64,000 nt of DNA from the NCBI RefSeq assembly GCF_037975245.1, contig NC_092570.1:7315001-7379000 (forward strand). Reading direction: 5' to 3'. Under the pieces are notes generated by a model, which was not told the origin of the DNA, did not search any database, and saw nothing but the letters and a program-made list of their open reading frames with translations. How positions within the stretch are numbered: position 1 is the first letter of the stretch; each line of letters begins with the position of its first letter. Position numbers and translations under genes: made by a program. This stretch comes from Apostichopus japonicus. Taxonomy: Eukaryota; Echinodermata; Holothuroidea; Aspidochirotida; Stichopodidae. This document shows positions 909 to 64,000 of the stretch, one piece after another.

Positions 909-2077
909 ATGATGGAAAGCACGTATAATCTCCGACTTGTCTCTTACTTTATGTATGGCGCCCTTATTCATATACTTCTCGTAGCTTCAGTACAAACCAC
1001 CTCCGTACATCTTGGTCCTGCAGAAGGATTCAGAAAATTTAGTGACGTCATCTTTCCCGGCGAGTACATTAGTTTACAGTGTGTGTGTGGGATGGACTGA
1101 CAACCTGTAACATATCAATGCTTTGTAATGACACAGTTATCTACGAGGAAGGAGGGCTTAAGTCTAATGATTATATTTTTAATAAAATTGAATCGTCCTG
1201 TTTACTGAGTATTACGTTTATCAATATAACTGTTCAGCACAAAGGAGTATATAAATGCCGGATACAGAATGGAGACACGAAAATGGAGGATACATACAAC
1301 CTCAACGTTGTTACGGAATGGCCTCAGTGCTTGGCTAAGTTTAATGAATCTGATAATAGCTTTCAATTGTTCTGTTACACATTTAGTCAGACGGGTCAAA
1401 ACGTTCCTCAGACATGGGAAATAATTGAACCAGGAGACAAGTCGAAGCCATTTTTGAACTTCACAATTCAACATAATCCAAGCATATCTGTATTGAAGAT
1501 TGTTGGCGTTTCACATTCGGAAATCACAGAAGAGAATCTAACCGATCTATACAAATGTTCTCATTTCAATGAATCTTCACGAAGTTGCTTCTTTAATTTT
1601 AATTCTCCCATGATCGACGTTATCACATCATCAACTCCACTTCCCGATGCAGGGTCCTCGGGTCCATCTGACCAACAGTCTGAGCAAGTAGTTACAGAAC
1701 CAGTGATTGCACCATCGACTACTAAAAGGAGGGTACTACAACAAACATCATTCAATCTCGTAGGTGTTGGGTTGTCATGTGCAGTTGTTGGCTTTATAGT
1801 GCCATTTATTTCACTTTTATTTACGTGTTTCAAACTAAAGGATAGGAAGAATGCGTCGAAAACTGCAGAAAACGAAGAGAACGAAGATCCTGCAGCAGCT
1901 ACAGCCTATTCTATGAAGATATTTAATACCAGAGACCAAACAAAGTACGAGACTACCATAACTAACAATACAAATAACACGTACGACTATGCAGACCAAA
2001 GAGAACTTAACATTAGAGAGTTACCAAGGCAGTCTCATGGAACGCCGACAGTTCAACAATACGAAACTGTACAGTAA
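909..2077 (+). pseudogene. Two-Ig receptor copy 1 (short-tail class), frameshifted
   Basis: It begins with the family start MMESTYNLRL and a signal peptide to about residue 31. At about 1080-1089 the GT run in the Ig1 codons (TGT GTG TGG in the other copies) is two bases longer, which shifts the frame and brings a stop at 1098. A second open frame, 1079-2077, carries the rest: Ig1 ending in GVYKC, Ig2 with the FC...W...YKC core, a Ser/Thr-rich stalk, a membrane span near SFNLVGVGLSC, and the short-class tail ending YETVQ. Everything past the shift is open, so the lesion is recent, a slippage allele or a sequencing error. The Ig2 position that is AKC in most copies is AKF here. A polyadenylation signal follows at 2104. 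If the GT count is wrong, this is an intact gene. Confidence 0.8.
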
Positions 2078-3700
2078 AATACATACTGAGATGCAAGTGT
2101 GTCAATAAAAGACGGAATCGTTGTGTATTTAACGACTATTAACATACGTACTTAATATTAAAACGTATTTGGCGGAAACGGAACCAAATGACATGCATTA
2201 TAGCGACAGAGACTAATGATGAAACTTATCAAAGCTTTCTCGTGTTAAAGAAAAAAGCAAACAGTTTTTATACTTGGCAAAACCCAAAGCGCCGTTGATT
2301 TCAACCATTAGATGTGTGGACTTGCTCAAGTCCTTTAGTCTTCTCTGTATACATGAAAGAATATCGAAAGCGGCGAAATCTTGCTAATGGAATAATATCT
2401 TTCTTAGCTGCTTTGATGAAGTTGATTATTACCCACATCTTCATCACCTAGTTAACTTAATTGGTTAGGTTAATTGTTAGGTTAACTAATTGGTTTTCTT
2501 CTACTTTTATTTTAAGTTTGTGTCAGTGAATTACATCTCATCAGGACATGTCTTTTTTGTTTCCATAATCTTTTCTTACTTTGTTTCTTCTCAAACTCCT
2601 AGCTAACAATGTGCTTAATATGAAAAATCTGAACAATGTTGCTCTTTGTAGAGAGATGTTTGTAAATTCCTTTGAACGTCTTTTGAAGAAAAACGAGAGC
2701 AATGAAAGGAAACGAATAAAGAAATATTAAAATATTGAACAACTTAAAAATTTATATAAAGTCAGAATTTAAAACTGATATGAATGAAGGTAAATTTTTA
2801 TGCCTTTTTTTCCCTTTAAAACTGAAGTGAAATGAATGGAGACAATTTTAGAGAAACGCTTTCGAAGTAATAAAAAGATTTGATCCAAAACTTGATTAAT
2901 TTCAGTCTAACCAATTAAAATCAACATTTTAAGGACGCCTGAAAATATTTTAAGGAGTTCATGCTCATCCGTATAACTATATATAAACCATGGTAATAAG
3001 AGAATGCTATATCGGTGTTGTGTGTGTACGTGTGTTTGACCTTCAGCTATATATAACTCTCTATTTGGGATTTTTGTTGATTGTAAAAGTATATTATAAG
3101 TATACTATACGCACTACACAGAGAAATAAAACTGGTTACCTGCCTTCTTTGTTCAGTTGACGGTTCTGTCAGTTATTGGTTTTATTGTAAGTTTTATTTT
3201 GTATGTACATTGTAGAACAATGTGTGACGTCATTCACCAAAAAGTTTCTGCTTCTTTCATCGTTTTTAAAAACATCTTTATGTCATCAGTGCTCATTTAC
3301 AACCCTGTGTACTTCACATCAAATATCAGAAAATGGTATCGAGAATATCAATAATAATAATAATAATCAGGAATTGAACAATATGCCTATGAATTAGAGC
3401 AGTTTCCCAAAACTGTCCAAAAATAACTTTAACATGGCACGAGGTAAGCCGATGGACTAAACAGTATTCTTCACTAACTCAACCGGTATATTAATGGTCA
3501 CATGCCACTAGAAGTGAAAGATGGGAAGGGGGAAGTAGGGGCGCACGACCTGGTGAGCATTAGTATTCGTGTGAAGGCACGCGAGGACTACCTAATTTTG
3601 AAAATATACTCGTGTACGGGTGTGAGACCATCGTGGAAGGGTCCTGCATTGTATTAATTATACAAGCACAAACAATAAATTTCAAATCTTTGCGAAGGAA
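2078..3700. other. Downstream block of short-tail receptors
   Basis: No gene is seen. The stretch is closely similar to 52315-53990 (after copy 8) and 57736-59230 (after copy 9), and in reverse to the regions after copies 4 (19600-20122) and 6 (37930-38935). A 65-codon reading frame at 3157-3354 is not preserved in the paralogues. The block is best read as the 3' part of the duplicating unit. Confidence 0.6.
2104..2109 (+). terminator. Polyadenylation signal, copy 1
   Basis: AATAAA lies 27 bases after the stop codon. Copies 4, 6, 8 and 9 have the same hexamer 27-28 bases past their stops, implying a very short 3' UTR for the short-tail transcripts. Confidence 0.6.
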
Positions 3701-4667
3701 TTGAAATATGCCTCCATCCATCCCGATACCCCGTTTCACCCACCCATCGAAGTAAAAAAAGCGAGAGGAGTTTTGGCGCCTGGGTTCGATCCCCGGCCAA
3801 GGCAGTTTGCTTTTGCCGCTCTCTTATATGGTGGCTTGCCTTGATTAGGAGCTTTGAGTATTAGAAACGAGCACACACACACACATATATATATATATAT
3901 GAATCTTTCAAAATAATCTACTTTAATGTAACACGCCGCGACACGATATCTACTTGGTCTATAAATCTTTCTTCTTTCTTTCTTTTTTCTTTGCATGGGG
4001 GAGGGAGGGGGCGGGGGTGAGGGAGTGAGTAGGTTCAATTCAAGTAAATAGGTAAGACCAAATTGTAAAAGGTGGAAATGACGGGTGATCAGTTGTATTG
4101 ATGTTTTAATTCATCAAACCATGAAAGAGATTAGCTGTTTTCTTCTGTATGTTTTCGTTAGTGATGATAATAGCTACTGACATTCAACATGAGCAGTCAA
4201 ATTGTGCACAGCACTAAGTACATGTGCACAATTTAACAATATTTAATACTAACTTGTATAAATATATCTTTGAAAATTTCGTATTGAAGGGACTGAATAT
4301 TTCCATCTTCTTTCCGTGTAAAGTGGTGACAGGGTTGTGGTTGGATGGTTGGGGGGGGGGGGGCAGCAATTGACAGCAACATCTTGCAGTATTATGGCAC
4401 TACCATAAGAATCAATTGAAAGAGACTAGAGTGATGAAAATTGCTTGGGTCTAACAGTAAACTTCTTCGCAGGACATGTATGTATGAGCTCGCTGACCAG
4501 GGCGAAATCGTTTGACTTTTGTCTTGTATGTGTGTACACAAAGCAAATTGGATGCACGCTGTCTAATAAATTGTTCACATAGTAGGAATGCGTACTTCAT
4601 TGCAAAATCAATGCAGTTTTTCAGCCTAAGTACACATTTTGTCGCAGTAAACCTCATTGACGACAAG
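3701..4667. other. Unassigned spacer with a SINE-like fragment
   Basis: Similarity to the other receptor flanks stops near 3700. Positions 3775-3810 contain a tRNA B-box-like word (GGTTCGATCCCC), followed by (CA)n(TA)n at 3871-3900. This could be a tRNA-derived SINE piece, but no A box is clear. A pyrimidine-rich tract (3965-3995), a G-rich tract (3998-4030) and a G run near 4350 follow. I see no gene. Confidence 0.4.
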
Positions 4668-6133: not shown

Positions 6134-7759
6134 TTATACTAGAGCATCGTCTTTACTAGGATCAAAGACACAGTAATGAATGTCCTCTTCTGTCTTGTCT
6201 TCTTCAAACGGCTCATATAAAGAACAATCAACCATATCGGTGGTATTTATCGGAGAATCATCTTGGAAATTGTCATCTTGAAACGTCAATTTATCAATAT
6301 CAACTATTGAATATGGTTCACATTGACTATCACGTAACTGGTTTGCCTTGCAACGAGGAGATACTTTCTTCACTTTCGCGTAAAGATGGTCTGGTACTTC
6401 ATCTTCATCGTTCGTTGTGTTCGATTTGTGTTTATATTCTTCAGTTTCATGAGAAGTTGTCTGTCTGACGTCATGACGAACGCCTCTTTTCTCCACCTTC
6501 TTGTAAAGATCTTCAGGTACTTTACCTTCACTCTCCGTAATGTGTGATCTGTTTGTGTTATCCTTTATTTCATGAGAGGTTGACTGTCTGGCGTCATGAC
6601 GAACGCTTCTTTTCTCCACCTTCTTGTAAAGATCTTCGGATATATTTCCTTCACTGTTCATTGTACTCCTATTATGTTTATCCTTCATAGATCCTCTCTC
6701 TGATTTCCTCTGTATTTCATCGTATGAAGGAATCTCCTGATTAGCATTATTAGATAATTTACCCAAGACCGTTCCTGTTTGAACCAAGTCGCCGTTCGTA
6801 TGTGTTTCGTTTAAATTCATACCTTTGCAAGAAAATCTGCCGTTTGTTTTACACATTATAACCGTCAAACAGACAGGTACTAACATAAATGAAACTGTAA
6901 CAGCTAAGATGATGATAATCGATTTCATTACGGGTTGCTCGCTGGTCTTAACGGATGTAGGCGATATCGATGTTGAGGTGTGACGTAATGGTCTCATAGA
7001 ATGCCTTTGATGTGTTGGTAAATCAATATTATTATCGTTGGTGTGCTTCCATCAATATCAATTGAAGATTCGAAATTAAAATAACAATTTCTAGATAGAT
7101 CATTAGAATATGAACACTTGTACTCATTGGTTAGATTCTCCTTGGTGATTTTTGCATGTGAAACCCCCACAATCTTCACTGCAGGCGTGCTTGAAAGATG
7201 TTGAATTGTGAAGTTCGTAAATGTCTCCGGATTGTTTCCCGGTTCAAGTTTTTCCCATGTCTGGAAAGCAGATTGACCTATCGGACTAAAGGTGTAACAA
7301 AACAATTGAAAGCTTCTATCAGATTCATTAAACTTAGCCAAACACTGAGGCGATTTCGTAACAACGTTGAGATTATGTGTCCTCCATTGTTGTGTCTCCA
7401 TTCTGTATCCGGCATTTATATATTCCTTTGTGCTGAATGGTTATATTGAAAAATATAATATTCAGTGACGAGGAAGATTCAATTTTATGAAAATCATAAT
7501 CATTAGACTTAAGCTCTCCTTCCTCGTAGATAAATGTGTCATTGATAAGCATTGATATGTTACAGGTTGTCAATCCATCCCACACACACTGTAAAATAAA
7601 TTTCTCTCCAGGAAAGATGACTTCACTAACATCTCTGAATCCTCCTAAAGGACCAAGATGTACGGATGTGGTTTGTACTAAAGCTACAAGAAGTATATGA
7701 ATAATGGCGCCATACATAAAGTAAGAGACAAGTCGAAGATCATACGTGCTTTCCATCAT
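6134..7759 (-). pseudogene. Two-Ig receptor copy 2 (long-tail class), two frameshifts
   Basis: The start (MMESTYDLRL at 7759), signal peptide and Ig1 are intact to GDTTMEDT. A 2-base loss near 7373 then creates a stop. Ig2 continues in another frame (7370-7030), and a 1-base loss near 7025 returns to the original frame for the stalk, membrane span and tail (6997-6134). The losses sum to three. The tail is the richest of the family in the repeated YxxV unit: three copies, EDLYKKVEKR twice and DHLYAKVKK once. The C-terminal ITIM position reads IHYCVF, which has F in place of the L/V/I of the consensus. The nearest relative is copy 7, which lacks the three repeats. Two independent indels make a true pseudogene more likely than sequencing error. 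Confidence 0.85.
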
Positions 7760-8995: not shown

Positions 8996-9627
8996 TCACT
9001 GAAAGAAAAGTGAGCAGAAGAAACACAAATAATGTGTACGTTGGCAGTATTTATTTCTGATAAAACTTCTGATGTCTACAAAGGCTGACTTTCGACAGAT
9101 AGAGAAGAAATCACTGTAAATAAAATCTGAAAATCTGTTTTTTTTCCAACAAAGTTAAGACAAGTTAATGGATCAAACATGAATCGCAAAAGTATAGCAC
9201 TGCACAATAATGCAAAGTTGAATCTTGGGCAAGGGTTCCTCATGACTTTCGTTTTAAAGTGGTACCCCAAATCGACACCAGTTAAGTCTTCACGAACAAA
9301 GAGTGTTTCTCTTAACTACAAATGGCCTCCCACTTGTCTTCAGGAATCCAAAATCTGCACCATTATTGACCTGTGAACAGAAAATATGATATACGTGTAA
9401 GCACAGATACAGATATAGCACATGATAACTCACATTATCATAAACATACATTTACATTAAAATTTTATAACATATTGGGAGGTATACATTTAAATCTAGG
9501 TCCCTCAAATTATAAGCCAGGAATAGCAGCTTTACCAAATTATTATTAGCTTTGCACAGCATAACACCAAGTTATTTCTCAAAGCTTAATAATTATGTTA
9601 ATCATGTTAATAATGATCCCAATAGAC

Positions 9628-15062: not shown

Positions 15063-16559
15063 TTATTCTATGTTATCCTCTTTATCAGGATCAAGAACAT
15101 CGTAATGAATTTCTTCTTCTGTCTTCTCGCTTCCAATAAGCTCATAAGCAGAATAGTCAACCATACCGGTGGTTTTTATCGACAAACCATTTTCAGAATG
15201 AGCGCCCGCTACCATCAATTGATCAATATCTTCAATCGATACTGTTAAATATGGTTCACATCTTCCACCAGGTGACTGGTTTCCCTGGTAACGAATACCT
15301 CTTTTCTCTATCCTCTTATAAAGATCATCTGGTAGCTTACTTTCACTGTTCCTTATGTACGATTTATATTTACCTTCCTGTAAATCTTGAGAGCTGGACT
15401 CTTGGTCGTTATTGTGAGGGCATCTTCGCTCTATTTTCTTGTACAGATCTTCTGGTAGTCCACATTCAGTATTCATTGCGTACGATTTGTATTTACTATC
15501 CGTGGAATCTTCTGTTGCTGTGGACGACACTATGTTTGTATTATTTGGTGATATAATCACCGTTCCTGTTTGTACCAATTCGTTTTCCCTCTGTGATTCA
15601 ATCTCTTGCTGCTTACCTTTCCAAAAAAGATGATTTTTCATTTTGTATATCATAACCGCCAAACTGACAGACAGTATCAGAAAGAGAACGGCAGCAGCTA
15701 TGATAATAATGATACTATTCCTGAATGGTTTCATTTGTGGCTGCTCGATGGTATAATTGGTTGTAAGTGGGAGTGAGGTGTGACTGAATGTACTCGTTGA
15801 AAACAATGGACGTGTTTCTAGCTTAGAGATTGGTTTGTTTGTGCTTACATCGATTTCGCAGGATAGCGTGAGATTGAAAGAACAACTTTTTGATAAATCA
15901 TTGAAATCAAAACACTTGTATAAACCGGTTAGATTCTCCTTGGTGATTTTCGTATTTGAAATTCCCACAATCTTCACAACAGATTTGCTTTGACGTTGGT
16001 GAATTATGAAGTTCGTAAATGTCTTCGAATTGTCTCCTGTATCAATTATTTCCAAAGTTTGGAAAACGTGCTGATCAGTCGGACTAAATGTGTAACAGAA
16101 CAATTGAAAGCTATTATCAGATTCATTACACTTAGCCAGGCACTGAGGCGATTCCGTAACAACGTTGAGTTCATACGTATCCTCCATTGTTGTGTCTCCA
16201 TTTTGTATCCGACATTTATATATTCCTTTGTGCTTAAGGGTAACATTGATAAATGTAATACTCATTGAACAAGACGATTCAATTCTTTTAAAAACATAAT
16301 CATTAGACTCAAGCCCTCCTTCCTCGTAGATAGAGGTGCCATTGATAAGCATTGATATGTTACAGGTTGTCAATCCATTCCACACACACTGTAAAATAAA
16401 GAGCTCTCCGGGAAAGATGACGTCACTAACATTTCTGAATCCTTCTGAAGGACCAAGATGTACGGAGGTGGTTTGTACTGAAGCTACAAGAAATATATGA
16501 ATAATGGCGCCATACATAAAGTAAGAGACAAGTCGAAGATTGTACGGGCTTTCCATCAT
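15063..16559 (-). CDS. Two-Ig receptor copy 3 (long tail with ITIM), 498 aa
   Basis: A type I membrane receptor predicted for the cell surface. By alignment with copy 5: signal peptide to about residue 31; Ig1 with cysteines near 58, 66, 97 and 116; Ig2 with five cysteines, of which LFC and YKC are the core pair; a Ser/Thr-rich stalk; a membrane span (isoleucine-rich, no charged residue) near 282-304; a tail of about 190 residues. The tail has two DLYKKI/DLYKRI units and ends with EIHYDVLD, where I-x-Y-x-x-L fits the ITIM consensus that recruits SH2 phosphatases in known receptors. An in-frame ATG at 16628 would add 23 residues, because one extra A removes the stop found upstream of the other copies. 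I chose MMESPYN at 16559 by homology. Expression is unproven. Confidence 0.85.
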   Translation of the reverse strand: MMESPYNLRLVSYFMYGAIIHIFLVASVQTTSVHLGPSEGFRNVSDVIFPGELFILQCVWNGLTTCNISMLINGTSIYEEGGLESNDYVFKRIESSCSMSITFINVTLKHKGIYKCRIQNGDTTMEDTYELNVVTESPQCLAKCNESDNSFQLFCYTFSPTDQHVFQTLEIIDTGDNSKTFTNFIIHQRQSKSVVKIVGISNTKITKENLTGLYKCFDFNDLSKSCSFNLTLSCEIDVSTNKPISKLETRPLFSTSTFSHTSLPLTTNYTIEQPQMKPFRNSIIIIIAAAVLFLILSVSLAVMIYKMKNHLFWKGKQQEIESQRENELVQTGTVIISPNNTNIVSSTATEDSTDSKYKSYAMNTECGLPEDLYKKIERRCPHNNDQESSSQDLQEGKYKSYIRNSESKLPDDLYKRIEKRGIRYQGNQSPGGRCEPYLTVSIEDIDQLMVAGAHSENGLSIKTTGMVDYSAYELIGSEKTEEEIHYDVLDPDKEDNIE

Positions 16560-20122: not shown

Positions 20123-21286
20123 TTACTGTACAGTTTCGTATTGGTGAACTGTCGGCGTTCCATAAGATTGCCTTGGTAACTCTCTGGTGTTAAGTTCTCT
20201 TTGGTCTGCATAGTCATACGTGTTATTTGTATTGTTAGTTATGGTAGTATCGTACATTGTTTGGTCTCTGGTATTATATATCCTCATAGAATAGGCTGCA
20301 GCTGCTGCAGGATCTTCGTTCTCTTCGTTTTCTGCACTTTTTGAGGCATTCTTCCTATCCTTTAGTTTGTAACACGTAAATAGAAGTGCAATAAACGGTA
20401 CTATAAAGCCAACAACTGCACAGGACAACCCAATACCTACGAGCTTGAATGATGTTTGTTGTGGTACTCTCCTTTTAGTAGTCGATGCTGCAGTCACTGT
20501 TCCTGTGACTACTTGCTCAGACTGTTGGTCAGATGTACCCGAGGACCCTGCATCGAGGAGGGGAGTTGGCGCTGTGATAACGTCGATCATGGGAAAATAT
20601 AAGTTAAAGAAGCAACTTTTTGAAGAGTCATTTACATAAGAACACTTGTATAGACCGGTAAGATTCTTCTTTGTGATTTTCGTATTTGAAATCCCCACAG
20701 TCTTCACTACAGATGTGAATGAAAGATGTTGAATTGTATAGTCCGTAAATATCTTCGAATGGCTTCCTGGTTCGATTATTTCCCATCTCTGTAAAACAGT
20801 TTGACCAGTCGAACTAAAGATGTAACAGAACAATTGAAAGCTATTATCAGATACATTACACTTAGCCAAGCACTGAGGCGATTCCGTAACAACGTTGAGT
20901 TCATACGTATCCTCCATTGTTGTGACTCCATTCTGTACCCGGCATTTATATATTCCTCTGTGTTTAATGGTAACATTGATAAATGTAATATCCAGTGAAC
21001 AAGACGAAGAACTTTTAGCAAAAAAAAAAACCTGTGACTGAAACCCTCCTTCCTCGTAGATAGATATGTCATTAAAAAACATTGATATATTACAGGTTGT
21101 CAGTCCATCCCACACACACTGTAAAGTAAATTTCTCTCCAGGAAAGATGACGTCACTCAATTTTCTGAATAATGAAGGACCAAGTTGTACGGAGGTGGTT
21201 TGTACTGAAGCTACAAGAAGTATATGGATAATGGCGCCATACATAACGTAACAGACAGGTCGAAGATAGTAAGTGCTTTCCATCAC
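20123..21286 (-). CDS. Two-Ig receptor copy 4 (short-tail class), 387 aa
   Basis: Intact open frame from MMESTYYLRP. It has a signal peptide, Ig1 (LQC, TTC, SSC and GIYKC), Ig2 (PQC, AKC, LFC, YKC, KSC) and a stalk. The membrane span is near residues 283-306, within SFKLVGIGLSCAVVGF and onward, and has no charged residue. The cytoplasmic tail of about 75 residues starts KLKDRKNASK, is rich in Asn/Glu, has an alanine run, and holds six tyrosines, the last in QYETVQ at the C-terminus. None of them fits the ITIM consensus or a spaced ITAM pair, so the signalling output is open. The ectodomain matches the long-tail copies, but span and tail are unrelated to theirs. Ig1 carries FFNDISIYEEGGFQSQV, the variant loop also seen in copies 6 and 10. 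Confidence 0.85.
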   Translation of the reverse strand: MMESTYYLRPVCYVMYGAIIHILLVASVQTTSVQLGPSLFRKLSDVIFPGEKFTLQCVWDGLTTCNISMFFNDISIYEEGGFQSQVFFFAKSSSSCSLDITFINVTIKHRGIYKCRVQNGVTTMEDTYELNVVTESPQCLAKCNVSDNSFQLFCYIFSSTGQTVLQRWEIIEPGSHSKIFTDYTIQHLSFTSVVKTVGISNTKITKKNLTGLYKCSYVNDSSKSCFFNLYFPMIDVITAPTPLLDAGSSGTSDQQSEQVVTGTVTAASTTKRRVPQQTSFKLVGIGLSCAVVGFIVPFIALLFTCYKLKDRKNASKSAENEENEDPAAAAAYSMRIYNTRDQTMYDTTITNNTNNTYDYADQRELNTRELPRQSYGTPTVHQYETVQ

Positions 21287-23131: not shown

Positions 23132-23214
23132 AGAAGATTAATAAAACAAAATCTTTTACTTCGATCAAAATATATATCTTCACCACATGTTTATGACAGT
23201 ATAATCAGTAAGGC

Positions 23215-30049: not shown

Positions 30050-31546
30050 TTATTCTAAGTTATCCACTTTACTAGGATCAAGAACATCGTAATGAATTTC
30101 CTCTTCTGTCTTCTCGCTTCCAAAAGGCTCATAAGCAGAACAGTCAACCATATCGGTGGTATTTATCGACAAAACATTTTCAGAATGAGCGCCATCTACT
30201 ATCGATTGATCAATATCGTCAATCGATACTGTTAAATATGGTTCACATCTTCCACCAGGTGACTGGTTTCCCTGGTAACGAATACCTCTTTTCTCTATCC
30301 TCTTATAAAGATCATCTGGTAGCTTACTTTCACTGTTCCCTATGTACGATTTATATTTACCTTCCTGTAATTCTTGAGAGCTGGACGGTTGGTCGTTATT
30401 TTGAGGGCATCTTCGCTCTATTTTCTTGTACAGATCATCTGGTAGTCCACATTCAGTATTCATTGCGTACGATTTGTATTTACTATCCGTGGAATCTTCT
30501 GTTGTTGTGGACGACACTAAGGTCGTATTATTTGGTAATCTACTCACTGTTCCTGTTTGGACCAATTCGCTTTCCCTCTGTGATTCAATCCCTTGCTGCT
30601 TAACTTTTCTAAAAATATGATTTTTCATTTTGTAAATGATAACCACCAAACACACAGACATTATCAGTAAGACAACGGTGGCAGCTATGATAATAATGAT
30701 AATATTCCTTAATGGTTTCATTTGTGGCTGCTCGGTGGAATTATAGGTTGTACGTGGTGGTGAGGTGTAACCCAATGTACTCGTTGAATACAATGGATGT
30801 GTTTCTACCTTAGAGATTGTTGTGTTTATGCTTTCATCGATTTCGCGGGAAAGCTTGAGATTGAAAGAACAACTTTTTGAAAAATCATTTGAAGGTGAAC
30901 ACTTGTATATACCGGTAAGATTCTCCTTTGTGATTTTCGTATGTGAAATCCCCACAGCCTTTACTACAGTGATGCTTTTAAGATGTTGAGTTGTGAAGTT
31001 CGTATATATCCTCGAAATGTTTCCTGGTTCAACTATTTCCCATGTCTGAGAATCGTATTGACCAGTCGGACTAAATGTGTAACAGAACAATTGAAAGCTA
31101 TTTTCAGTTTCATTACACTTAGCCAAGCACTGGGGCCATTCCGTAACAACGTTGAGGTTGTATGTATCCTCCATTGTTGTGTCTCCATTCTGTATCCGGC
31201 ATTTATATATTCCTTTGTGCTGAATAGTTATATTAATAAATGTCATACTTAGTGAACAAGACGATTCAAATTTCTTAAAAACATAATCATTAGACTTAAG
31301 CCCTCCTTCCTCGTAGATAGAGGTGCCATTGATAAGCATTGATATGTTACAGGTTGTCAATCCATCCCACACACACTGTAAAATAAAGAGCTCTCCAGGA
31401 AAGATGACGTCACTAACATTTCTGAATCCTTCTGCAGGACCAAGATGTACGGAGGTGGTTTGTACTGAAGCTACAAGAAATATATGAATAATGGCGCCAT
31501 ACATAAAGTAAGAGACAAGTCGAAGATTGTACGGGCTTTCCATCAT
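30050..31546 (-). CDS. Two-Ig receptor copy 5 (long tail with ITIM), 498 aa
   Basis: Best reference copy of the long class. Signal peptide about 1-31. Ig1 has C58, C66, C97 and C116, with KGIYKC as the usual YxC motif. Ig2 has C140, C144, C155, W169, C216 and C226; C155-C216 is the expected core disulphide, with W169 14 residues after C155, and C140-C226 a likely second bridge, leaving C144 unpaired. The stalk is about 233-281, with many Thr/Ser. The membrane span is 282-304, isoleucine-rich and uncharged. The tail has YxxI at Y373 (DDLYKKI) and Y414 (DDLYKRI), EPYLTV, and the ITIM-like IHYDVL around Y486. Several NxS/T sequons occur in both Ig domains. Copy 3 is its close sister and the surrounding blocks are duplicated too. 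Ligand and partners are unknown. Confidence 0.87.
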   Translation of the reverse strand: MMESPYNLRLVSYFMYGAIIHIFLVASVQTTSVHLGPAEGFRNVSDVIFPGELFILQCVWDGLTTCNISMLINGTSIYEEGGLKSNDYVFKKFESSCSLSMTFINITIQHKGIYKCRIQNGDTTMEDTYNLNVVTEWPQCLAKCNETENSFQLFCYTFSPTGQYDSQTWEIVEPGNISRIYTNFTTQHLKSITVVKAVGISHTKITKENLTGIYKCSPSNDFSKSCSFNLKLSREIDESINTTISKVETHPLYSTSTLGYTSPPRTTYNSTEQPQMKPLRNIIIIIIAATVVLLIMSVCLVVIIYKMKNHIFRKVKQQGIESQRESELVQTGTVSRLPNNTTLVSSTTTEDSTDSKYKSYAMNTECGLPDDLYKKIERRCPQNNDQPSSSQELQEGKYKSYIGNSESKLPDDLYKRIEKRGIRYQGNQSPGGRCEPYLTVSIDDIDQSIVDGAHSENVLSINTTDMVDCSAYEPFGSEKTEEEIHYDVLDPSKVDNLE

Positions 31547-38935: not shown

Positions 38936-40324
38936 TTACTGTACAGTTTCGTATTGTTGAGCTGTCGGTGTTCCATAAGATTGCCTTGGTAACTCTCTGG
39001 TGTTAAGTTCTCTTTGGTCTGCATAGTCGTACGTGTCATTTGTATTGTTAGTTATGGTAGTATCGTACATTGTTTGGTCTGTGGTATTATGTATCCTCAT
39101 AGAATAGGCTGCAGCTGCTGCTGGATTTTCGTTCTCTTCGTTTTCTGCACTTTTTGACGCATTCTTCCTATCCTTAATTTGTAACATGTAAATAGAAGTG
39201 CTATAAACAGTCGATGGTACAGTCACTGGAAGCTCACCTTCATTCCTCATTGAATGCGGTACTTGATTACTATCTGTACGGTGTTCTTCTATTGCTTGAC
39301 ATGTTGAACTTTCTGAGTTAGCAGTATCGGATGATCTCCTGAAGACTACAGCTGTTTGACCCAAGTCGTTTCCCACCTGTGCTCTCTTCTCCTTCTTGTT
39401 TACTGTTTCAGAGAAGCTATTCTTCATCTTGTAAGTAATGACAGTCAAACTGGCGCAAACCATCAGAAAGACAGCCGCAGTAACTACAATAATTACAATG
39501 CTCTTAGGTTTCTTTGCTGGCTGCTTGCTAGTATCAGATGGTAGTGATGTGTGACGTAATGTACTCATTAAACGATTAATACGTGTTGGTGGAACACTGG
39601 TATATGATGTGCTAATATCGATCCCGCGAGAATAATTGAGATTAAAAATACAACTTTTCGAAGCTTCCAATGAATAAGAACACTTGTATTGTTCCATTCG
39701 ATTCTCCCCGTTTATATTCTCAATAGACACGCCTACGCGCTTCACCTTGCTAGGACCTTTTCTTATTGTGAATTCCGTAAATGTTGTCGAACCAACTCCT
39801 ATATCAAATATTTCCCATGTCTGAGGAACGTAACTACCAGTCGGACTAAAGGTGTAACATAACAATTGAAAGTTATTTTCATATTCATTGAACTTAGTCA
39901 AACACTGAGGCGATTCAGTAACAACATTGAGTTCATACTTATCCTTCATTGTTGTGTCTCCATTCTGTACAAGACATTTATATATTCCTTTGTGCTGTAA
40001 GTTTACATTGTTAATTTGAATATTCAGTGAACAATTTGACGAACGACTATTAGTAAAACCACTATCCTGGGACTGAAACCCTCCTTCCTCGTAGATAGAG
40101 GTGTCATTAAATGACATTGATATATTACAGGTTGTCAATCCATCCCACACACACTGTAAAATAAAGAGCTCTCCAGGAAAGATGACGTCACTAAATTGTC
40201 TGAATCCTTCCGCAGGACCAAGATGTACGGATTTGGTTTGTACTGAAGCTACAAGAAGTATATGAATAATGGCGCCAAACATAAAGTAAGAGACAAGTCG
40301 AAGATTATACGTGCTTTCCATCAT
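38936..40324 (-). CDS. Two-Ig receptor copy 6, chimeric tail, 462 aa
   Basis: Signal peptide, Ig1, Ig2, stalk and membrane span (SIVIIVVTAAVFLMVCASLTVITY) follow copy 10 closely, including the tail start SFSETVNKK and on to MRNEGELP at about residue 365. There the sequence jumps to the short-tail class: VTVPST, then a deletion that removes the short-class membrane span, then IKDRKNASKSAENEEN and the complete short tail ending QYETVQ. At the first junction both parents share CCAG (39226-39229 reversed). The frame is kept throughout. The result is a functional-looking receptor with one membrane span and a hybrid tail lacking any ITIM. The Ig2 position AKC is TKF here. Confidence 0.85.
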   Translation of the reverse strand: MMESTYNLRLVSYFMFGAIIHILLVASVQTKSVHLGPAEGFRQFSDVIFPGELFILQCVWDGLTTCNISMSFNDTSIYEEGGFQSQDSGFTNSRSSNCSLNIQINNVNLQHKGIYKCLVQNGDTTMKDKYELNVVTESPQCLTKFNEYENNFQLLCYTFSPTGSYVPQTWEIFDIGVGSTTFTEFTIRKGPSKVKRVGVSIENINGENRMEQYKCSYSLEASKSCIFNLNYSRGIDISTSYTSVPPTRINRLMSTLRHTSLPSDTSKQPAKKPKSIVIIVVTAAVFLMVCASLTVITYKMKNSFSETVNKKEKRAQVGNDLGQTAVVFRRSSDTANSESSTCQAIEEHRTDSNQVPHSMRNEGELPVTVPSTVYSTSIYMLQIKDRKNASKSAENEENENPAAAAAYSMRIHNTTDQTMYDTTITNNTNDTYDYADQRELNTRELPRQSYGTPTAQQYETVQ

Positions 40325-40544
40325 CTCTTACACTCAACAATCGAATTGTCTGGAAAAACTGCGACAGATCGCTCTTACTTAAATCCCTTGCCAACAGAAC
40401 ACCGCTCACACCTTTTCAATGGCTGTTACTAGAACATGTTGTATTTTATGAAATTTAATATGATCGGACGACAACTGCAAAACAGTGACACGAACAGAAA
40501 TGACATAAAACAAAATCCACACGATAATAACATAACAAAAATTA

Positions 40545-40735
40545 ATAAACTCCATTCCGTACACACTATAAATAAAAAGAGCTCTCCGTGGAAAGATAGC
40601 GTCACTATATTCTGTGAATCCTTCTGAAGGTCCATATGATCAGGACGTAGTTTGTACTGAAGATTCAAGAAGCATATGAGTTAATGGCGCTATGCATGTA
40701 GTAAGATATACATGGAAGACGATAGATGGCCATTA
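40545..40735 (-). pseudogene. Receptor 5' stub upstream of copy 6
   Basis: On the minus strand this resembles the family's signal peptide and start of Ig1 (CATATGCTTCTTGAATCTTC, then GACCTTCAGAAGGATTCACAG, then GGAGAGCTCTTTTTATTTATAG) but breaks off after the first Ig1 cysteine and is frameshifted. The same stub lies upstream of copies 7 and 10. It is a relic carried along with the duplicating unit. Confidence 0.75.
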
Positions 40736-44338: not shown

Positions 44339-44379
44339 GCACGAACATGAAAAGTTTGCAGCTAGCTCAATACAGAAGA

Positions 44380-44500
44380 GCCATCGGCAAGAAAATCTTA
44401 CCTCTGTCTTACAAGTTATAACGGTCAACCAGACAGATAAAAACAGAAATAAAAGTGTAAAAGCTACGACGATAATAATCCGAACTGATAATAATCTGAA
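44380..44500 (-). pseudogene. Receptor membrane-span relic downstream of copy 7
   Basis: The minus strand resembles the span and first tail residues of copies 2 and 7: hydrophobic codons followed by LTVITCKTEVRFSC, where copy 7 has LTVIMCKTKARFSS. The surrounding Ig domains and tail are missing. It is either a leftover of another receptor or, less likely, a usable alternative 3' segment. Confidence 0.6.
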
Positions 44501-45879: not shown

Positions 45880-47169
45880 TTAGTCTAAGGTGACGTTTTT
45901 AGTAGGATCAAGCACATCGTCATGAATTTCCTCTTCTGTCTTCTCTCCTTCAAACGGCTCATATACAGAACAGTCAACCATATTGGTGGTATTTATCGGA
46001 GATTCATCTTGGAAATTGGCGTCTTGAAATGTAAGTTTATGAATATCAACTGTTGAATATGGTTCACATTGACTATCACTGTTCATTGTGTTCCTATCAT
46101 CCATAGATATTCTCTCTGATTTCCTCTGTATTTCATCGTATGAAGAAAACCCTGGATTAACATTTTCAGATAATTTACTCAAGACCGTTCCTGTTTGAAC
46201 CAAGTCGCCTTTCGTATGTGTTTCGTTTACCTTCCTACCTTTGCTAGAAAATCTAGCCTTTGTTTTACACATTATAACCGTCAAACAGACAGATAATATC
46301 AGAAATGAAACTGTTAGAGCTACGATGATAATAATCCATTTCATTACGGGTTGCTCGCTGGTCTTATGGGGTGTAGGGGGTGTTGAAGTGTGACGTAATG
46401 AACTCATAGAATACCTTTCATGTGTTGGTAAATCAGATTTTACTATCGTTGGTGTGCTTACATCAATATCAATTGAAGATTCGAAATTAAAATAACAATT
46501 TCTAGACAGATCATAAGAATAGGAACACTTGTACTCATTGGTTAGATTCTCCTTGGTAATTTTTACATGTGAAACCCCCACAATCTTCACTACAGATTTG
46601 CTTGAAAAATGTTGAATTGTGAATTCGGTAAATGTCTTAGATTTGTCTTCTGGTTCAATTATTTCCCATGTCTGTAAAGCAGATTGACCAATCGGACTAA
46701 AGGTATAACAGAACAATTGAAAGCTATTATCAGATTCATTACACTTAGCCAAACACTGAGGCGATTTCGTAACAACATTGAGTTCATATGTATCCTCCAT
46801 TGTTGTGTCTCCATTCTGTACCCGGCATTTATATATTCCTTTATGATGAATGGTTACATTGTTAATTTGCATATTCAGTGAACAAGACGAAGAACTTTTA
46901 GCAAAAACATATTCCTGGGACTCAAGCCCTCCTTCCTCGTAGATAGTAGCGTCGTTGATAAGCATTGACATGTTACAGGTTGTCAATCCATTACACACAC
47001 ACTGTAAAGTAAATATCTCCCCAGGAAAGATGACGTCACTCAATTTTCTGAATGCTTCTGCAGGACCAAGATGTACGGAGTTGGTTTTCACTGAAGCTAC
47101 AAGAAGCATATGAATAATGGCGCCATACATACAGTAAGAGACAACTCGAAGATCATACGTGCTTTCCAT
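45880..47169 (-). CDS. Two-Ig receptor copy 7 (long class, no ITIM tyrosine), 429 aa
   Basis: Intact frame from MESTYDLRVV; the first of the usual two Met codons is ATA here. It has a signal peptide, Ig1 (LQCVCNGLTTC, with Cys replacing the Trp after the first cysteine), Ig2 with the AKC extra cysteine, a stalk, a span near WIIIIVALTVSFLILSVC, and a short version of the long-class tail. Compared with copy 2, the three YxxV repeats are deleted, joining MNS directly to DSQCEPYS. The ITIM tyrosine is replaced by Asp (EIHDDVLD). So this is a long-class receptor stripped of its main phosphotyrosine motifs; PYSTVD and VYEPF remain. It may act differently from copies 3 and 5, or be drifting. Confidence 0.85.
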   Translation of the reverse strand: MESTYDLRVVSYCMYGAIIHMLLVASVKTNSVHLGPAEAFRKLSDVIFPGEIFTLQCVCNGLTTCNMSMLINDATIYEEGGLESQEYVFAKSSSSCSLNMQINNVTIHHKGIYKCRVQNGDTTMEDTYELNVVTKSPQCLAKCNESDNSFQLFCYTFSPIGQSALQTWEIIEPEDKSKTFTEFTIQHFSSKSVVKIVGVSHVKITKENLTNEYKCSYSYDLSRNCYFNFESSIDIDVSTPTIVKSDLPTHERYSMSSLRHTSTPPTPHKTSEQPVMKWIIIIVALTVSFLILSVCLTVIMCKTKARFSSKGRKVNETHTKGDLVQTGTVLSKLSENVNPGFSSYDEIQRKSERISMDDRNTMNSDSQCEPYSTVDIHKLTFQDANFQDESPINTTNMVDCSVYEPFEGEKTEEEIHDDVLDPTKNVTLD

Positions 47170-47384: not shown

Positions 47385-47578
47385 AAGCTCCATTCCGTAC
47401 ACACTATAACTAAAAAGAGCTCTCCGGGTAAAGATGACGTCACTATATTCTGTGAATCCTTCTGAAGGTCCAAGATATAACGAGGTAGTTTGTACTGAAG
47501 CTACAAGAAGCATATGAGTTAACGGCGCTATGTATGTAGTAAGATATAAATGGAAGGCGATATATGGCCATAACATCA
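47385..47578 (-). pseudogene. Receptor 5' stub upstream of copy 7
   Basis: The minus strand reads THMLLVASVQTTSLYLGPSE and on to SDVIF, clearly the family signal peptide and Ig1 start. A one-base insertion (ATCTTTACCCGG) then breaks the frame and the homology ends soon after. It matches the stubs upstream of copies 6 and 10. Confidence 0.85.
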
Positions 47579-51189: not shown

Positions 51190-52314
51190 ATGTATGGCGC
51201 TATTATTCATATGCTTCTTGTAGCTTCAGTACAAACAACCTCCGTACATCTTGGTCCTGCAGAAGGATTCAGACAAGTTAGTGATGTCATCTTTCCTGAA
51301 GAGTTCTTTATTTTACAGTGTGTGTGGGATGGATTGACAACCTGTAATATATCAATGTCATTTAATGACACCTCTATCTACGAGGAAGGAGGGCTTAATA
51401 CTAATGAATATGTTTTTAATAAAATTGAATCATCCTGTTCACTGATTATTAAATTTTTCAATGTAACCATTCAACACAAAGGAATATATAAATGCCGGAT
51501 ACAGATTGGAGACACAACAATGGAGGATACATACAACCTCAACGTTGTTACGGAATGGCCCCAGTGCTTGGCTAAGTGTAATGAATCTGAAAGTAGCTTT
51601 CAATTGTTCTGTTACACCTTTAGTCCGATTGATCAATTTGTTTTTCAGACATGGGAAATAATTGAACCAGGAGACAATTCGAAACTTTTTACGGAATTCA
51701 CAATTCAACAACGTCAAAGCATATCTGTTGTGAAGACTGTAGGGATTTCACATATAAAAATCACAAAGGAGAATCTTACCGGTCTATACAAGTGTTCTTA
51801 TTCAAATGACTCTTCAAAAAGTTGCTTCTTTAACTTATATTCTCCCATGATCGACGTTATCACATCGCCAACTCCCCTCCTCGATGCAGGGTCCTCGGGT
51901 CCATCTGACCAACAGTCTGAGCCAGTAGTCACAGGACCAGTGACTGCACCATCGACTACTACAAGGAGGGTACCACAACAAACATCATTCAAGCTCGTAG
52001 GTATTGGGTTGTCATGTGCAGTTGTTGGCTTTATAGTGCTATTTATTGCACTTTTATTTACGTGTTTCAAACTAAAGGATAGGAAGAATGCGTCGAAAAC
52101 TGCAGAAAACGAAGAGAACGAAAATCCTGCTCCAGCTGCAGCCTATTCTATGAGGATATATAATACCAGAGACCAAACAATGTACGAGACTACCATAACT
52201 AACAATACAAATAACACTTATGACTATGCAGACCAAAGAGAACTTAACACCAGAGAGTTACCAAGGCAATCTTATGGAACGCCGACAGTTCAACAATACG
52301 AAACTGTACAGTAG
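51190..52314 (+). CDS. Two-Ig receptor copy 8 (short-tail class), 5' deletion, 374 aa
   Basis: The open frame begins three codons earlier with TTG; the first ATG is at 51190 (MYGAIIHMLLVASVQTTSVH), which is codon 15 of the other copies. The remaining hydrophobic stretch could still serve as a signal peptide. Ig1 and Ig2 are complete, with the AKC extra cysteine, then the stalk, the membrane span (SFKLVGIGLSCAVVGFIVLF), and the short tail with APAAAYSMRI, YDYADQ and the terminal YETVQ. The frame is open to the normal stop and the polyadenylation signal follows at 52342. About 750 bp of standard 5' flank has been lost, so transcription would need a different promoter. An intact frame with no usual promoter could be a recent loss. 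Confidence 0.75.
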   Translation: MYGAIIHMLLVASVQTTSVHLGPAEGFRQVSDVIFPEEFFILQCVWDGLTTCNISMSFNDTSIYEEGGLNTNEYVFNKIESSCSLIIKFFNVTIQHKGIYKCRIQIGDTTMEDTYNLNVVTEWPQCLAKCNESESSFQLFCYTFSPIDQFVFQTWEIIEPGDNSKLFTEFTIQQRQSISVVKTVGISHIKITKENLTGLYKCSYSNDSSKSCFFNLYSPMIDVITSPTPLLDAGSSGPSDQQSEPVVTGPVTAPSTTTRRVPQQTSFKLVGIGLSCAVVGFIVLFIALLFTCFKLKDRKNASKTAENEENENPAPAAAYSMRIYNTRDQTMYETTITNNTNNTYDYADQRELNTRELPRQSYGTPTVQQYETVQ

Positions 52315-56553: not shown

Positions 56554-57735
56554 TTGAAAAGTCGTAACGTTTGGATAATAATGGCCAGCTGGAATAAACC
56601 TGAACTTATCTCTTTCTTTATGTATGGCGCTATAATTCATATTCTTCTTGTAGCTTCAGTACAAACCACCTCCGTACATCTTGGTCCATTCGAAGCAATC
56701 AAAAAATTTAGTGACGTCATCTTTCCTGGAGAGCTCTTTATTTTACAGTGTGTGTGGGATGGATTGACAACCTGTAACATATCAATGTTATTGAATGACA
56801 CAGTTATCTACGAGGAAGGAGGGCTTAAGTCTAATGATTATTTTTTTAATAATATTGAGTCGTCCTGTTCACTGATTATTACATTTACCAATGTAACCAT
56901 TCAACACAAAGGAATATATAAATGCCGGATACAGAATGGAGACACAACAATGGAGGATACATACAACCTCAACGTTGTTACGGAATGGCCCCAGTGCTTG
57001 GCCAAGTGTAATGAACATGAAAATAGCTTTCAATTGTTCTGTTACACCTTTAGTCCGATTGATCAATTTGTTTTTCAGACATGGGATATAATTGAGCCAG
57101 GAGACAATTTGAAACCTTTTACGGACTTCATTCTTCAACAACGTCCAAGCAGCTCTGTAATGAAGATTGTTGGGGTTTCACATTCGAAAATCACAAAGGA
57201 GAATCTAACCGATCGATACAAATGTTCTCATTCAAATGACTTTTCACGAAGTTGCTTCTTTAATTTTAATTCTCCCATGATCGACGAAATCCCATCACCA
57301 TCTCCACTCCCCGATGCAGGGTCCTCGGGTCCTTCTGACCTACAGTCTGAGCAAGTTCGTACAGGACCAGTGACTGCACCATCGACTACTAAAAGGAGGG
57401 TACCACAACAAACATCATTCAAGCTCGTAGGTATTGGGTTGTCATGTGCAGCTGTTGGCTCTATAGTACCGTTTATTGCACTTCTATTGACGTGTTACAA
57501 ACTAAAGAATAGGAAAAATGCGTCGACAACTGCAGAAAACGAAGAGAATGAAGATCCTGCAGCAGCTGCAGCCTATTCTATGAGGATATATTATACCAGA
57601 GACCAAACAATGTACGAGACAACCATAACTGACAATACAAATGACACGTACGACTATGCAGACCAAAACGAACTTAACACCAGAGAGTTACCAAGGCAAT
57701 CTCATGGAACGCAACAATACGAAACTGTACAGTAA
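56554..57735 (+). CDS. Two-Ig receptor copy 9 (short-tail class), novel N-terminus, 393 aa
   Basis: The frame opens at MKSRNVWIIMASWNKPELIS. Similarity to the family begins at LISFFMYGAIIHILLVASVQ. Upstream of that, neither the coding start nor the flank matches the standard leader. A later ATG at 56581 (MASWNKPELIS) gives a start closer to the usual length and is equally plausible. Ig1 and Ig2 are complete, with the AKC extra cysteine; then a stalk, a span (SFKLVGIGLSCAAVGSIVPF) and the short tail with YYTRDQTMYETTITDNTNDTYDYADQ-type tyrosines in shorter words. The C-terminus is shortened by a few residues before QQYETVQ. A polyadenylation signal follows at 57763. The family ectodomain seems to have gained a different 5' end. 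Confidence 0.82.
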   Translation: MKSRNVWIIMASWNKPELISFFMYGAIIHILLVASVQTTSVHLGPFEAIKKFSDVIFPGELFILQCVWDGLTTCNISMLLNDTVIYEEGGLKSNDYFFNNIESSCSLIITFTNVTIQHKGIYKCRIQNGDTTMEDTYNLNVVTEWPQCLAKCNEHENSFQLFCYTFSPIDQFVFQTWDIIEPGDNLKPFTDFILQQRPSSSVMKIVGVSHSKITKENLTDRYKCSHSNDFSRSCFFNFNSPMIDEIPSPSPLPDAGSSGPSDLQSEQVRTGPVTAPSTTKRRVPQQTSFKLVGIGLSCAAVGSIVPFIALLLTCYKLKNRKNASTTAENEENEDPAAAAAYSMRIYYTRDQTMYETTITDNTNDTYDYADQNELNTRELPRQSHGTQQYETVQ

Positions 57736-61139: not shown

Positions 61140-61322
61140 TAACAACAAATAATAAACTCCATTCCGTACACACTATAAATAAAAAGAGCCATCCGGGGAA
61201 ACGTCACTATATTCTGTGAATCCTTCTGAAGGTCCAAGATATAAGGAGGTAGTTTGTACTGAAGCTTCAAGAAGCATATGAGTTAATAGCGTTAAGCATG
61301 TAGTAAGATATAAATCGACGAC
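61140..61322 (-). pseudogene. Receptor 5' stub upstream of copy 10
   Basis: Matches the stubs at 40545 and 47385 (signal peptide and Ig1 start) with an extra deletion near 61198. Frames are broken. Confidence 0.75.
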
Positions 61323-63249: not shown

Positions 63250-63520
63250 ATCGTTTCGGCAAATAACTTTGAGCTCCAGTTCCGTTTATTAAAAATCTGT
63301 GTGAAACTAAATATATATTTGACAAGACTGTGTATTTTGATTGGTCCTTTCGATCCGCCGCTCAAACAGTTTGGAATAGATTGCCAATGAGTGTTCGATC
63401 CTGCACTTCTTCTTTTTAATGCCGTCTTCAGACACAACTTTTGGATCAAGCTTTCAATGTGTAACTCTACCGCGGTGACATTTTCATGTATATGTTCTTT
63501 GAACTTTAGAGTCTCTCTTA
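63250..63520 (+). mobile_element. LINE ORF2 C-terminal fragment
   Basis: Around 63350-63415 the plus strand reads FRSAAQTVWNRLPMSVRSCT, the stereotyped near-terminal motif (A-x-x-x-WN-x-LP-x-x-x-R) of CR1/L2-type and related LINE proteins. A stop follows and the frame shifts. No target duplication was found, so the ends are approximate. Confidence 0.55.
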
Positions 63521-63603
63521 ACTTTTAAAGTCTTGATTCTGGTCATTGTTTACCCTATTTTTCTTTCTTTTTTGTAAGCTTTTGATTAATTTACTATGTG
63601 GTT

Positions 63604-64000
63604 TTATTTTTTTAATGTATCACTTTTCGTAGGATCAATAACCTGGTATTCAGGATCCCGTTCTTGCCCGTCTGGTACATATTCATAATCATCATCTGCT
63701 GACGTACTAACTACGTCATCATCGTTATTGACATCCAATGATTGTGGTTCTTCCTTTCCACTAGTTTTTACCTCATTTACATCTTCATATGGCGCTATCA
63801 AATCTTGCTCTCCAAGTTCTCCGTTTTGAGATTCATCTTTTCTGTCCAATGTTTTATATAGCTCATTTGCAACTTCTCCGCTACTACCACTGGCATTATA
63901 TGAAACATAACCATCCCCCATAGAGCTCAGTTGGTCTCCTTGTTGTGTATCTGGATCCACTATATAGTTAGCAAATGTAAAGCTGGAAGCAGTTCCATAA
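63604..64000 (-). CDS. Receptor copy 11, cytoplasmic tail only (partial)
   Basis: The minus-strand frame is open from the right edge to the stop at 63604, so the protein continues outside the window. There is no true ATG start here (the codon at 63960 is GTG). What is seen is an acidic, tyrosine-rich tail: a NELYKTLDRK unit related to the DLYKKI units of the long class, then APYEDV, DYEYVPDG and PEYQVIDPTKSD. The last is the counterpart of HYDVLDPSK in copies 3 and 5, but with Pro at the -2 place, so not a strict ITIM. It is more divergent than any other copy and may mark the edge of another subfamily. An upstream AG at about 63959 leaves open a spliced structure. Confidence 0.65.
   Translation of the reverse strand, partial: YGTASSFTFANYIVDPDTQQGDQLSSMGDGYVSYNASGSSGEVANELYKTLDRKDESQNGELGEQDLIAPYEDVNEVKTSGKEEPQSLDVNNDDDVVSTSADDDYEYVPDGQERDPEYQVIDPTKSDTLKK

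What the first reader, a model, noticed from the sequence alone, without database searches (positions are those of the whole stretch)
909..64000. Tandem family of intronless two-Ig receptors with interchangeable tails
At least eleven copies share a near-identical signal peptide and two-Ig ectodomain, yet use three unrelated membrane/tail modules. Both Ig domains, stalk, span and tail are in a single open frame in each intact copy, with no introns visible. This suggests a retroposed founder that expanded locally. The pattern parallels vertebrate paired activating/inhibitory receptors and could be an undescribed invertebrate immune or self-recognition locus.
Basis: partly seen in the sequence, partly recalled or inferred. 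Interest (0 to 1): 0.92.

Follow-up and report, generated by a model that had tools for sequence, protein, structure and literature searches.

The report
Sea cucumber clustered immunoglobulin-type receptor genes
A stretch of sea cucumber DNA carries a cluster of about ten closely related genes for probable cell-surface receptors, each in one uninterrupted coding stretch, which share an outer part but carry two different inner tails and show signs of having swapped parts; their job is untested but may be immune or self recognition.

Summary
The window holds 10 ectodomain copies (8 with one open frame, 2 frameshifted), three 5' fragments and an eleventh tail cut by the window edge. Two corrections: there are two unrelated tail classes, A and B, not three, and the edge tail probably belongs with A; and only the first outer domain is confirmed as Ig, the second being Ig-like by its Cys/Trp pattern. 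The host is Apostichopus japonicus or a very close relative: gene model BSL78_19828 differs from copy c9 at 1 of its first 204 residues. Three protein searches returned only five A. japonicus gene models and one unnamed sequence. Copies spread by DNA duplication and exchanged parts: c4 is a mosaic, and c6 fuses a tail-A front to a tail-B cytoplasmic part in frame. Domain 2, most of domain 1 and both tails show dN/dS below 1. Expression, ligand and an activating/inhibitory pairing are not shown. Most likely it is an undescribed recognition-receptor cluster, analogous to Hydractinia Alr and Botryllus FcoR genes but not shown to be related.

The parts
909..2077 (+). c1: receptor copy, tail B, frameshifted in domain 1 (2 extra bases at a GT run)
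6134..7759 (-). c2: receptor copy, tail A with three LY(K/A)KV repeats, frameshifted at the end of domain 1
15063..16559 (-). c3: open-frame receptor, tail A, terminal motif IHYDVL; matches the ITAM consensus (YELI-x10-YDVL)
20123..21283 (-). c4: open-frame receptor, tail B; mosaic (upstream shared with c1/c2/c5, later domain 1 closest to c7 in most windows, domain 2 end and tail close to c8)
30050..31546 (-). c5: open-frame receptor, tail A, terminal motif IHYDVL; duplicate of c3 over about 5.3 kb
38936..40324 (-). c6: open-frame fusion: tail A stalk, span and membrane-proximal part joined to the tail B cytoplasmic part
45880..47169 (-). c7: open-frame receptor, short tail A; the terminal motif has no Tyr (IHDDVL)
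51190..52314 (+). c8: open-frame receptor, tail B; lacks the first 14 codons and the usual upstream block
56581..57735 (+). c9: open-frame receptor, tail B, divergent 5' end; agrees with A. japonicus BSL78_19828 at 203 of that model's first 204 residues
59639..60940 (-). c10: open-frame receptor, tail A ending early, without the terminal IHYxV(L/F) motif
63604..64000 (-). edge tail: C-terminal part of a probable further copy, cut by the window end; probably a divergent tail A
40526..40697 (-). 5' ectodomain fragment upstream of c6
47389..47555 (-). 5' ectodomain fragment upstream of c7
61155..61299 (-). 5' ectodomain fragment upstream of c10
44354..44479 (-). relic of a tail A membrane span
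   Evidence: tblastn E 1.5e-7 with the c7 tail, 3e-6 with the c2 tail, 0.076 with the c3 tail, none listed with the c10 tail

Best explanation
This is a clustered family, seen so far only in Apostichopus and one unnamed sequence, of host type I membrane receptors whose coding region is one open frame. Each has a hydrophobic signal peptide, an Ig domain, a second Ig-like domain (8-10 cysteines over both), a Ser/Thr/Pro-rich stalk, one uncharged span and a tyrosine-containing tail. Shown: the anatomy, the two tail classes, DNA-level duplication, recombination between copies (c4 mosaic, c6 fusion), lower silent divergence in domain 1 than in domain 2, and constraint. Inferred: the ectodomain binds a microbial or self ligand; tail A (two invariant tyrosines, a variable number of LYKKI/V-type repeats and, in 5 of 7 members aligned, a terminal IHYxV(L/F) motif) recruits SH2 proteins when phosphorylated; tail B (7-8 Tyr in the three open-frame copies, C-terminal YETVQ in all five window B tails) couples the same kind of ectodomain to a different output. 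Recombination in the cluster makes new ectodomain-tail pairings.
For: Ten copies, 8 with an open frame. A-B homology ends at nt 681-727, just after domain 2, in 22 of 24 A-B pairs; the other two, both with c4, end at 651 (c7) and 554 (c6). Domain 1 tree: tail-B copies are not one clade (AU p 0.0011), and c4 groups with c6, c7, c10 (support 100/99); domain 2 rejects that grouping (AU p 0.0014). PHI-type test 4 of 2000 permutations. c6 matches c10 at 90% up to nt 1099 and c4 at 94% from 1114. dS 0.13-0.27 in domain 1 against 0.39-0.64 in domain 2; dN/dS 0.44 (domain 2), 0.74 (tail A), 0.52 (tail B), each bootstrap interval under 1. Variation is highest at residues 84-98 and 158-195, with a lesser rise after 213. 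Both tail classes occur among the five A. japonicus models, all on a contig of the same length. Another A. japonicus Ig receptor, AjNLRC4, binds microbes through its Ig ectodomain (PMC8699970, passages).
Against: No expression, ligand or cell-type data. ITIM and ITAM counts are not significantly above shuffled tails; of the 7 tail-A rows aligned, c7 lacks the terminal tyrosine and c10 the whole motif. No charged span residue in 10 of 10. Domain 2 is not confirmed as Ig. dN/dS for domain 1 as a whole includes 1 (0.73, 0.50-1.15), so does residues 158-195 (0.79, 0.52-1.27), and positive selection is not established: residues 84-106 give 1.36 (0.73-2.95), on a segment picked after seeing the variation, and the c3-c5 tails 1.50 (0.82-3.41). 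Two of 10 copies are frameshifted. Assembly error could mimic c4, c6 or the frameshifts (that of c1 lies at a GT run).
Confidence: 0.6

Rival explanations
1. Developmental adhesion or cell-fusion proteins: a holothurian expansion of kirrelL-like intronless Ig proteins, working in cell-cell contact rather than immunity.
For: Echinoderm kirrelL encodes an Ig-domain membrane protein needed for skeletogenic cell fusion and lacks introns in all echinoderms examined; a sea cucumber kirrelL is named (PMC8903837, passages).
Against: The protein searches returned no kirrelL-like protein, up to E 10 in the widest one, though they need shared 5-residue words; no Kirrel or SYG-1 chain is among the 60 of 66 PDB profile matches shown. 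This is a fast-evolving cluster with broken copies and mixed tails, whereas the passages seen speak of one kirrelL gene. No kirrelL sequence was available for a direct test.
Confidence: 0.18
2. Phagocytosis or opsonic pattern receptors like AjNLRC4: the ectodomain binds microbes and the tails drive uptake, with no inhibitory member and no self recognition.
For: AjNLRC4 of the same species binds bacteria through an Ig ectodomain and promotes phagocytosis (PMC8699970, passages). Y-x-x-I/L/V counts exceed shuffles in c2 (P 0.003), c3 (0.036) and the edge tail (0.026), uncorrected; the other 7 of the 10 tails tested do not reach 0.05.
Against: No NACHT or other signalling domain was listed in the Pfam scans of the receptor copies; AjNLRC4 has two spans and widely spaced Ig domains. 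No sequence of it was at hand for comparison.
Confidence: 0.15
3. A decaying array without function: a retroposed or duplicated gene whose copies persist by chance, or a gene carried by a transposable element.
For: 2 of 10 copies frameshifted, c10 shortened, three fragments and a relic; a young LTR element and other retroelement genes in the window.
Against: 8 open frames; dN/dS intervals under 1 in domain 2 and the core of domain 1 (8 copies), tail A (c3, c5, c7, c10) and tail B (c4, c8, c9). Upstream duplication boundaries differ between pairs, and the LTR element (22375-28589) lies between copies, not around one.
Confidence: 0.07

Closest known systems
Botryllus fuhc-locus fester co-receptors (FcoR)
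   Same: Clustered IgSF membrane receptors with long tails that can bear ITIM, hemITAM or a core Y-x-x-I/L/V motif (PMC12065747, passages).
   Different: FcoR have a variable-type Ig, a sushi domain and two C2-type Ig domains, and oligomorphic FcoR loci swap motifs by alternative splicing; here an Ig plus an Ig-like domain in one open frame. No homology was tested.
Hydractinia allorecognition complex Alr genes
   Same: Cluster of IgSF genes in an invertebrate, 41 members (PMC11999971, passages); ITAM/ITIM motifs reported on candidate genes (PMC12065747, passages).
   Different: Different phylum; that Alr genes have coding introns is recalled, not looked up; no allorecognition phenotype is known here.
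Vertebrate paired receptors (KIR, LILR, CD200R, NITR; recalled)
   Same: Tandem cluster, shared ectodomain, different tails (recalled).
   Different: Activating members usually have a charged span residue (recalled); none of 10 here does. Multi-exon genes (recalled). No orthology indicated; the PDB profile matches lie mostly over domain 1 and are to many kinds of Ig protein.
Echinoderm kirrelL
   Same: Intronless Ig-domain membrane protein gene in echinoderms (PMC8903837, passages).
   Different: Developmental cell fusion; not returned by the searches made; not directly compared.
Sea urchin Sp185/333 (SpTransformer) family
   Same: Echinoderm immune gene cluster amid short tandem repeats, with gene conversion suggested (PMC5103432, passages).
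   Different: Two-exon genes (abstract lines of PMC3091723 and PMC5491942), not Ig receptors (recalled); a single pseudogene reported, whereas 2 of 10 copies here are frameshifted.

Membership tests
Immunoglobulin superfamily | Ig fold in domain 1 | tested here: met
   Pfam Ig_3 E 4.9e-7, above cut-off, in c4; below cut-off in the other 7 intact copies scanned; the c5 model matches solved Ig domains, best Foldseek E 1e-5
Immunoglobulin superfamily | Ig fold in domain 2 | tested here: inconclusive
   Cys, Trp and Y-x-C pattern in the alignment, and a few weak PDB profile matches reach into it (JAML E 0.0045); no Pfam match in 6 of 6 and pLDDT under 50 from residue 135 on
Type I single-span receptor | Signal peptide, ectodomain, one hydrophobic span, cytoplasmic tail | tested here: met
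   Hydropathy span in 10 of 10 tails; helices 6-28 and 279-322 in the c5 model; no signal-peptide predictor was run
Paired activating/inhibitory receptors | Inhibitory members with ITIM | tested here: inconclusive
   Strict matches in 4 of 10 tails (c3, c5, c7, c10), shuffle P 0.14-0.51
Paired activating/inhibitory receptors | Activating members with charged span residue or ITAM | tested here: not met
   0 of 10 spans charged; ITAM consensus in 1 of 10 (c3), shuffle P 0.08
Paired activating/inhibitory receptors | Opposed signalling from one ligand set | not testable with these tools
   needs cell assays
Hydractinia Alr / Botryllus FcoR | Homology of the ectodomain | not tested
   their sequences were not at hand; the protein searches did not return them
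Hydractinia Alr / Botryllus FcoR | Polymorphism tied to allorecognition | not testable with these tools
   needs population and grafting data
Echinoderm kirrelL | Sequence homology to kirrelL | tested here: inconclusive
   none returned up to E 10 by a word-seeded search; no direct comparison possible
Processed retrogene | No introns in coding sequence | tested here: met
   8 of 8 intact copies read as one open frame; no transcript available, 5' UTR introns cannot be seen
Processed retrogene | Poly-A tract, target-site duplication and an intron-bearing parent | not tested
   no search for tract or duplication at the copies was made; the relatives found are protein records without exon structure
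Transposon-borne gene | Gene lies inside element ends | tested here: not met
   upstream duplication ends differ between pairs; the LTR element has its own ends between c4 and c5. No dedicated search for element ends around each copy was made

The most novel reading that the evidence does not exclude
An echinoderm self/non-self or immune receptor complex in which single-exon receptors gain new ectodomain-tail pairings by recombination between genes: a modular system that works without exon shuffling or alternative splicing, with one set of ectodomains wired to two unrelated tyrosine-tail outputs and c3 drifting from an inhibitory-type to an ITAM-type motif.
Probability: 0.25. Interest if true: 0.85.

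Novelty: new variant of a known kind. Interest (0 to 1): 0.56.

Why it matters
Echinoderms lie next to chordates, and clustered Ig receptors with tyrosine tails are known from a hydroid and a tunicate. A cluster of this design in a sea cucumber, if expressed on coelomocytes, would give a tractable, farmed animal in which to ask whether such receptors arose repeatedly, and would show that single-exon genes can make new ectodomain-tail pairings by recombination.

Tried and rejected
Rejected: three unrelated tails (A subtypes are homologous). Rejected: an intron explaining the shortened 5' end of c8; c8 lacks the stretch from about -714 to +42 that c4 has, and the two bases before +43 in c4 are not the AG of an acceptor site, so a deletion fits better (the donor side was not looked at). 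Not supported: viral origin; 39 pattern matches in viral contigs, none confirmed. Weak Pfam hits such as m04gp34like, Adeno_E3_CR1 and PRIMA1 are below cut-off and taken as chance. NCBIfam gave only hits far below cut-off for c5 and none for c4.

Led nowhere: the first structure model (ectodomain, 10 sequences) was too poor to use, mean pLDDT 38; the second (full c5, 14 sequences, mean pLDDT 43) was usable for domain 1 only. One Rfam match to tRNA just above its threshold (43858-43922) was not confirmed by ARAGORN. Literature: searches returned no paper (being the five BSL78 tags); the listings (2 of 2; 4 of 5; 6 of 6; 25 of 61) showed none that describes this locus by title or abstract start. 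A genome paper of another sea cucumber, searched by terms, has no 'immunoglobulin' or 'Ig-like' (PMC13228809). The library holds open-licence PubMed Central papers only, and no supplements were read.
Full report
WHAT IS THERE. Ten full-length copies of one ectodomain were found by tblastn and blastn: three on the plus strand (c1, c8, c9) and seven on the minus strand. Eight have an open frame from start to stop (c3-c10, 374-498 residues if the starts are moved to the shared Met seen); c1 and c2 each have a 2-base frameshift in domain 1. Three fragments of the 5' ectodomain lie about 220-390 bases upstream of c6, c7 and c10. A further tail at the right edge is cut by the window end. A membrane-span relic lies at 44354-44479.

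HOST. Three searches of 5.8 billion proteins gave 2, 6 and 6 proteins (thresholds E 0.01, 0.01 and 10): five A. japonicus gene models (BSL78_19828, 19830, 19833, 19834, 19835, each listed on a contig of 414,821 bases, so probably one contig) and one 211-residue protein from an unnamed 6,305-base contig. BSL78_19828 differs from c9 at 1 of its first 204 residues and then diverges, apparently by frame, so the window is from A. japonicus or a very close relative. BSL78_19835 is 93% identical to c1 over its first 104 residues, mostly domain 2. BSL78_19834 has a tail closest to c2 (81%) but a domain 2 closest to c3 (76%, against 65% to c2). BSL78_19830 is at most 69% identical to any of the 8 intact window ectodomains, so the family has more members or more divergent haplotypes than this window shows.

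ANATOMY. Hydrophobic signal peptide (no predictor run); domain 1, an Ig domain (Pfam Ig_3 above cut-off in c4 only, below it in the other seven intact copies; Ig sandwich in the c5 model); domain 2, Ig-like by its cysteine and tryptophan pattern but without Pfam support in 6 of 6 copies; stalk; one span without charged residues in 10 of 10 tails; tail. The PDB profile search gave DSCAM at E 5e-6 over domain 1, then many kinds of Ig protein; 60 of 66 matches were shown.

TAILS. Class A (c2, c3, c5, c7, c10, front of c6) and class B (c1, c4, c8, c9, end of c6) share nothing but a trivial span match. The A subtypes are homologous (the c3 tail gave no listed match on c6). The edge tail resembles A at hhalign probability 48.6 but gave no tblastn match on any other copy at E 0.1. 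Over 7 tail-A rows (five window tails, two A. japonicus models), two tyrosines are invariant, one after Pro and one before Glu; LYxKI/V-type repeats number none (c7, c10) to three (c2); the terminal IHYxV(L/F) motif is present in 5 of 7, c7 having Asp for Tyr and c10 stopping before it. Tail B is 82-88% identical to that of c1 in the other three and ends YETVQ in all four and in c6. Strict ITIM matches occur in 4 of 10 tails and one ITAM-consensus match in c3. By shuffling nine window tails (not c1) and the edge tail, only the Y-x-x-I/L/V counts in c2, c3 and the edge tail fall under P 0.05; no ITIM or ITAM count does; nothing was corrected for 30 comparisons.

HOW IT GREW AND MIXED. c3 and c5 share 5,382 alignment columns at 86.5%, from -2394 to +2892: DNA duplication, not separate retroposition. 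A-B homology stops at nt 681-727 in 22 of 24 A-B pairs. c4 is a mosaic: its upstream region aligns with c1 and c2 (78-92% in windows from -460 to -141) and c5 (71-85%), but not with c7, c8, c9 or c10 (37-68%); over windows starting at 220-420, c7 is the closest or tied in 5 of 6, c9 in one; from 580 it is 91-99% like c8. Before 220 it is no closer to c7 than to c1, c2 or c5. Trees agree: in domain 1, tail-B copies are not one clade (AU p 0.0011); in domain 2, the c4-c6-c7-c10 grouping is rejected (AU p 0.0014). That second grouping was named after seeing a first tree, which weakens its p value. Most other branches in the two trees are unresolved (2 of 7 starred in each). A PHI-type permutation test of my own, on 109 sites, gave 4 of 2000. 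c6 joins a c10-like front (to nt 1099) to a B-type cytoplasmic part (from nt 1114), in frame. Over the 8 intact copies, dS is 0.20 (0.13-0.27) in domain 1 and 0.50 (0.39-0.64) in domain 2, as expected if conversion homogenises the 5' half.

SELECTION. dN/dS: domain 2 0.44 (0.32-0.60), domain 1 0.73 (0.50-1.15), domain 1 outside residues 84-106 0.52 (0.31-0.85), tail A 0.74 (0.59-0.93; c3, c5, c7, c10), tail B 0.52 (0.31-0.94; c4, c8, c9) (simple counting method, codon bootstrap, pairs not independent). Residues 84-106 give 1.36 (0.73-2.95), residues 158-195 0.79 (0.52-1.27) and the c3-c5 tails 1.50 (0.82-3.41): none significantly above 1, and the segments were chosen after seeing the variation.

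MECHANISM. Shown: one open coding frame, two tail classes on one ectodomain family, recombination, constraint. Inferred: surface display, ligand binding by the variable segments, phosphotyrosine signalling, different outputs from A and B. Not shown: expression, immunity, activation versus inhibition.

COMPARISON. It works most like Hydractinia Alr and Botryllus FcoR clusters (PMC11999971 and PMC12065747, passages), but no homology was tested. Echinoderm kirrelL shows that intronless Ig membrane genes exist in this phylum and that retrotransposition was already proposed for one (PMC8903837, passages); a relation to it is open. AjNLRC4 shows that Ig ectodomains bind microbes in this species (PMC8699970, passages). 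I found no paper on this locus in the searches named under Tried and rejected.

Noticed in passing
22375-28589: Very young LTR element between c4 and c5: 743-base LTRs 99.87% identical, 5-base target duplication AAGTG, one 1494-codon frame in which integrase precedes reverse transcriptase, the order recalled for Gmr1-like Ty3/gypsy elements.
   Followed up: partly
41976-43256: Reverse-transcriptase gene (Pfam RVT_1 E 5.8e-14) that looks Penelope-like; that label is recalled and was not tested.
   Followed up: partly
9623-11159: Inverted pair 9623-10168 / 10609-11159 at 94% identity, with 145-base satellite arrays between and overlapping the arms.
   Followed up: partly
48433-49079: Two adjacent frames that look like a non-LTR retrotransposon relic (recalled); the first matches DUF6451 at E 1.9e-7, the second nothing in Pfam.
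   Followed up: partly
41197-63228: Long TA runs cluster around c6-c10, a setting reminiscent of the short tandem repeats around sea urchin Sp185/333 genes (PMC5103432, passages).
   Followed up: no
P0006 (unnamed 6,305-base contig): A 45-50% identical ectodomain that begins MASF like c9's MASW start and stops within domain 2; it may be another species or a secreted or broken form.
   Followed up: no
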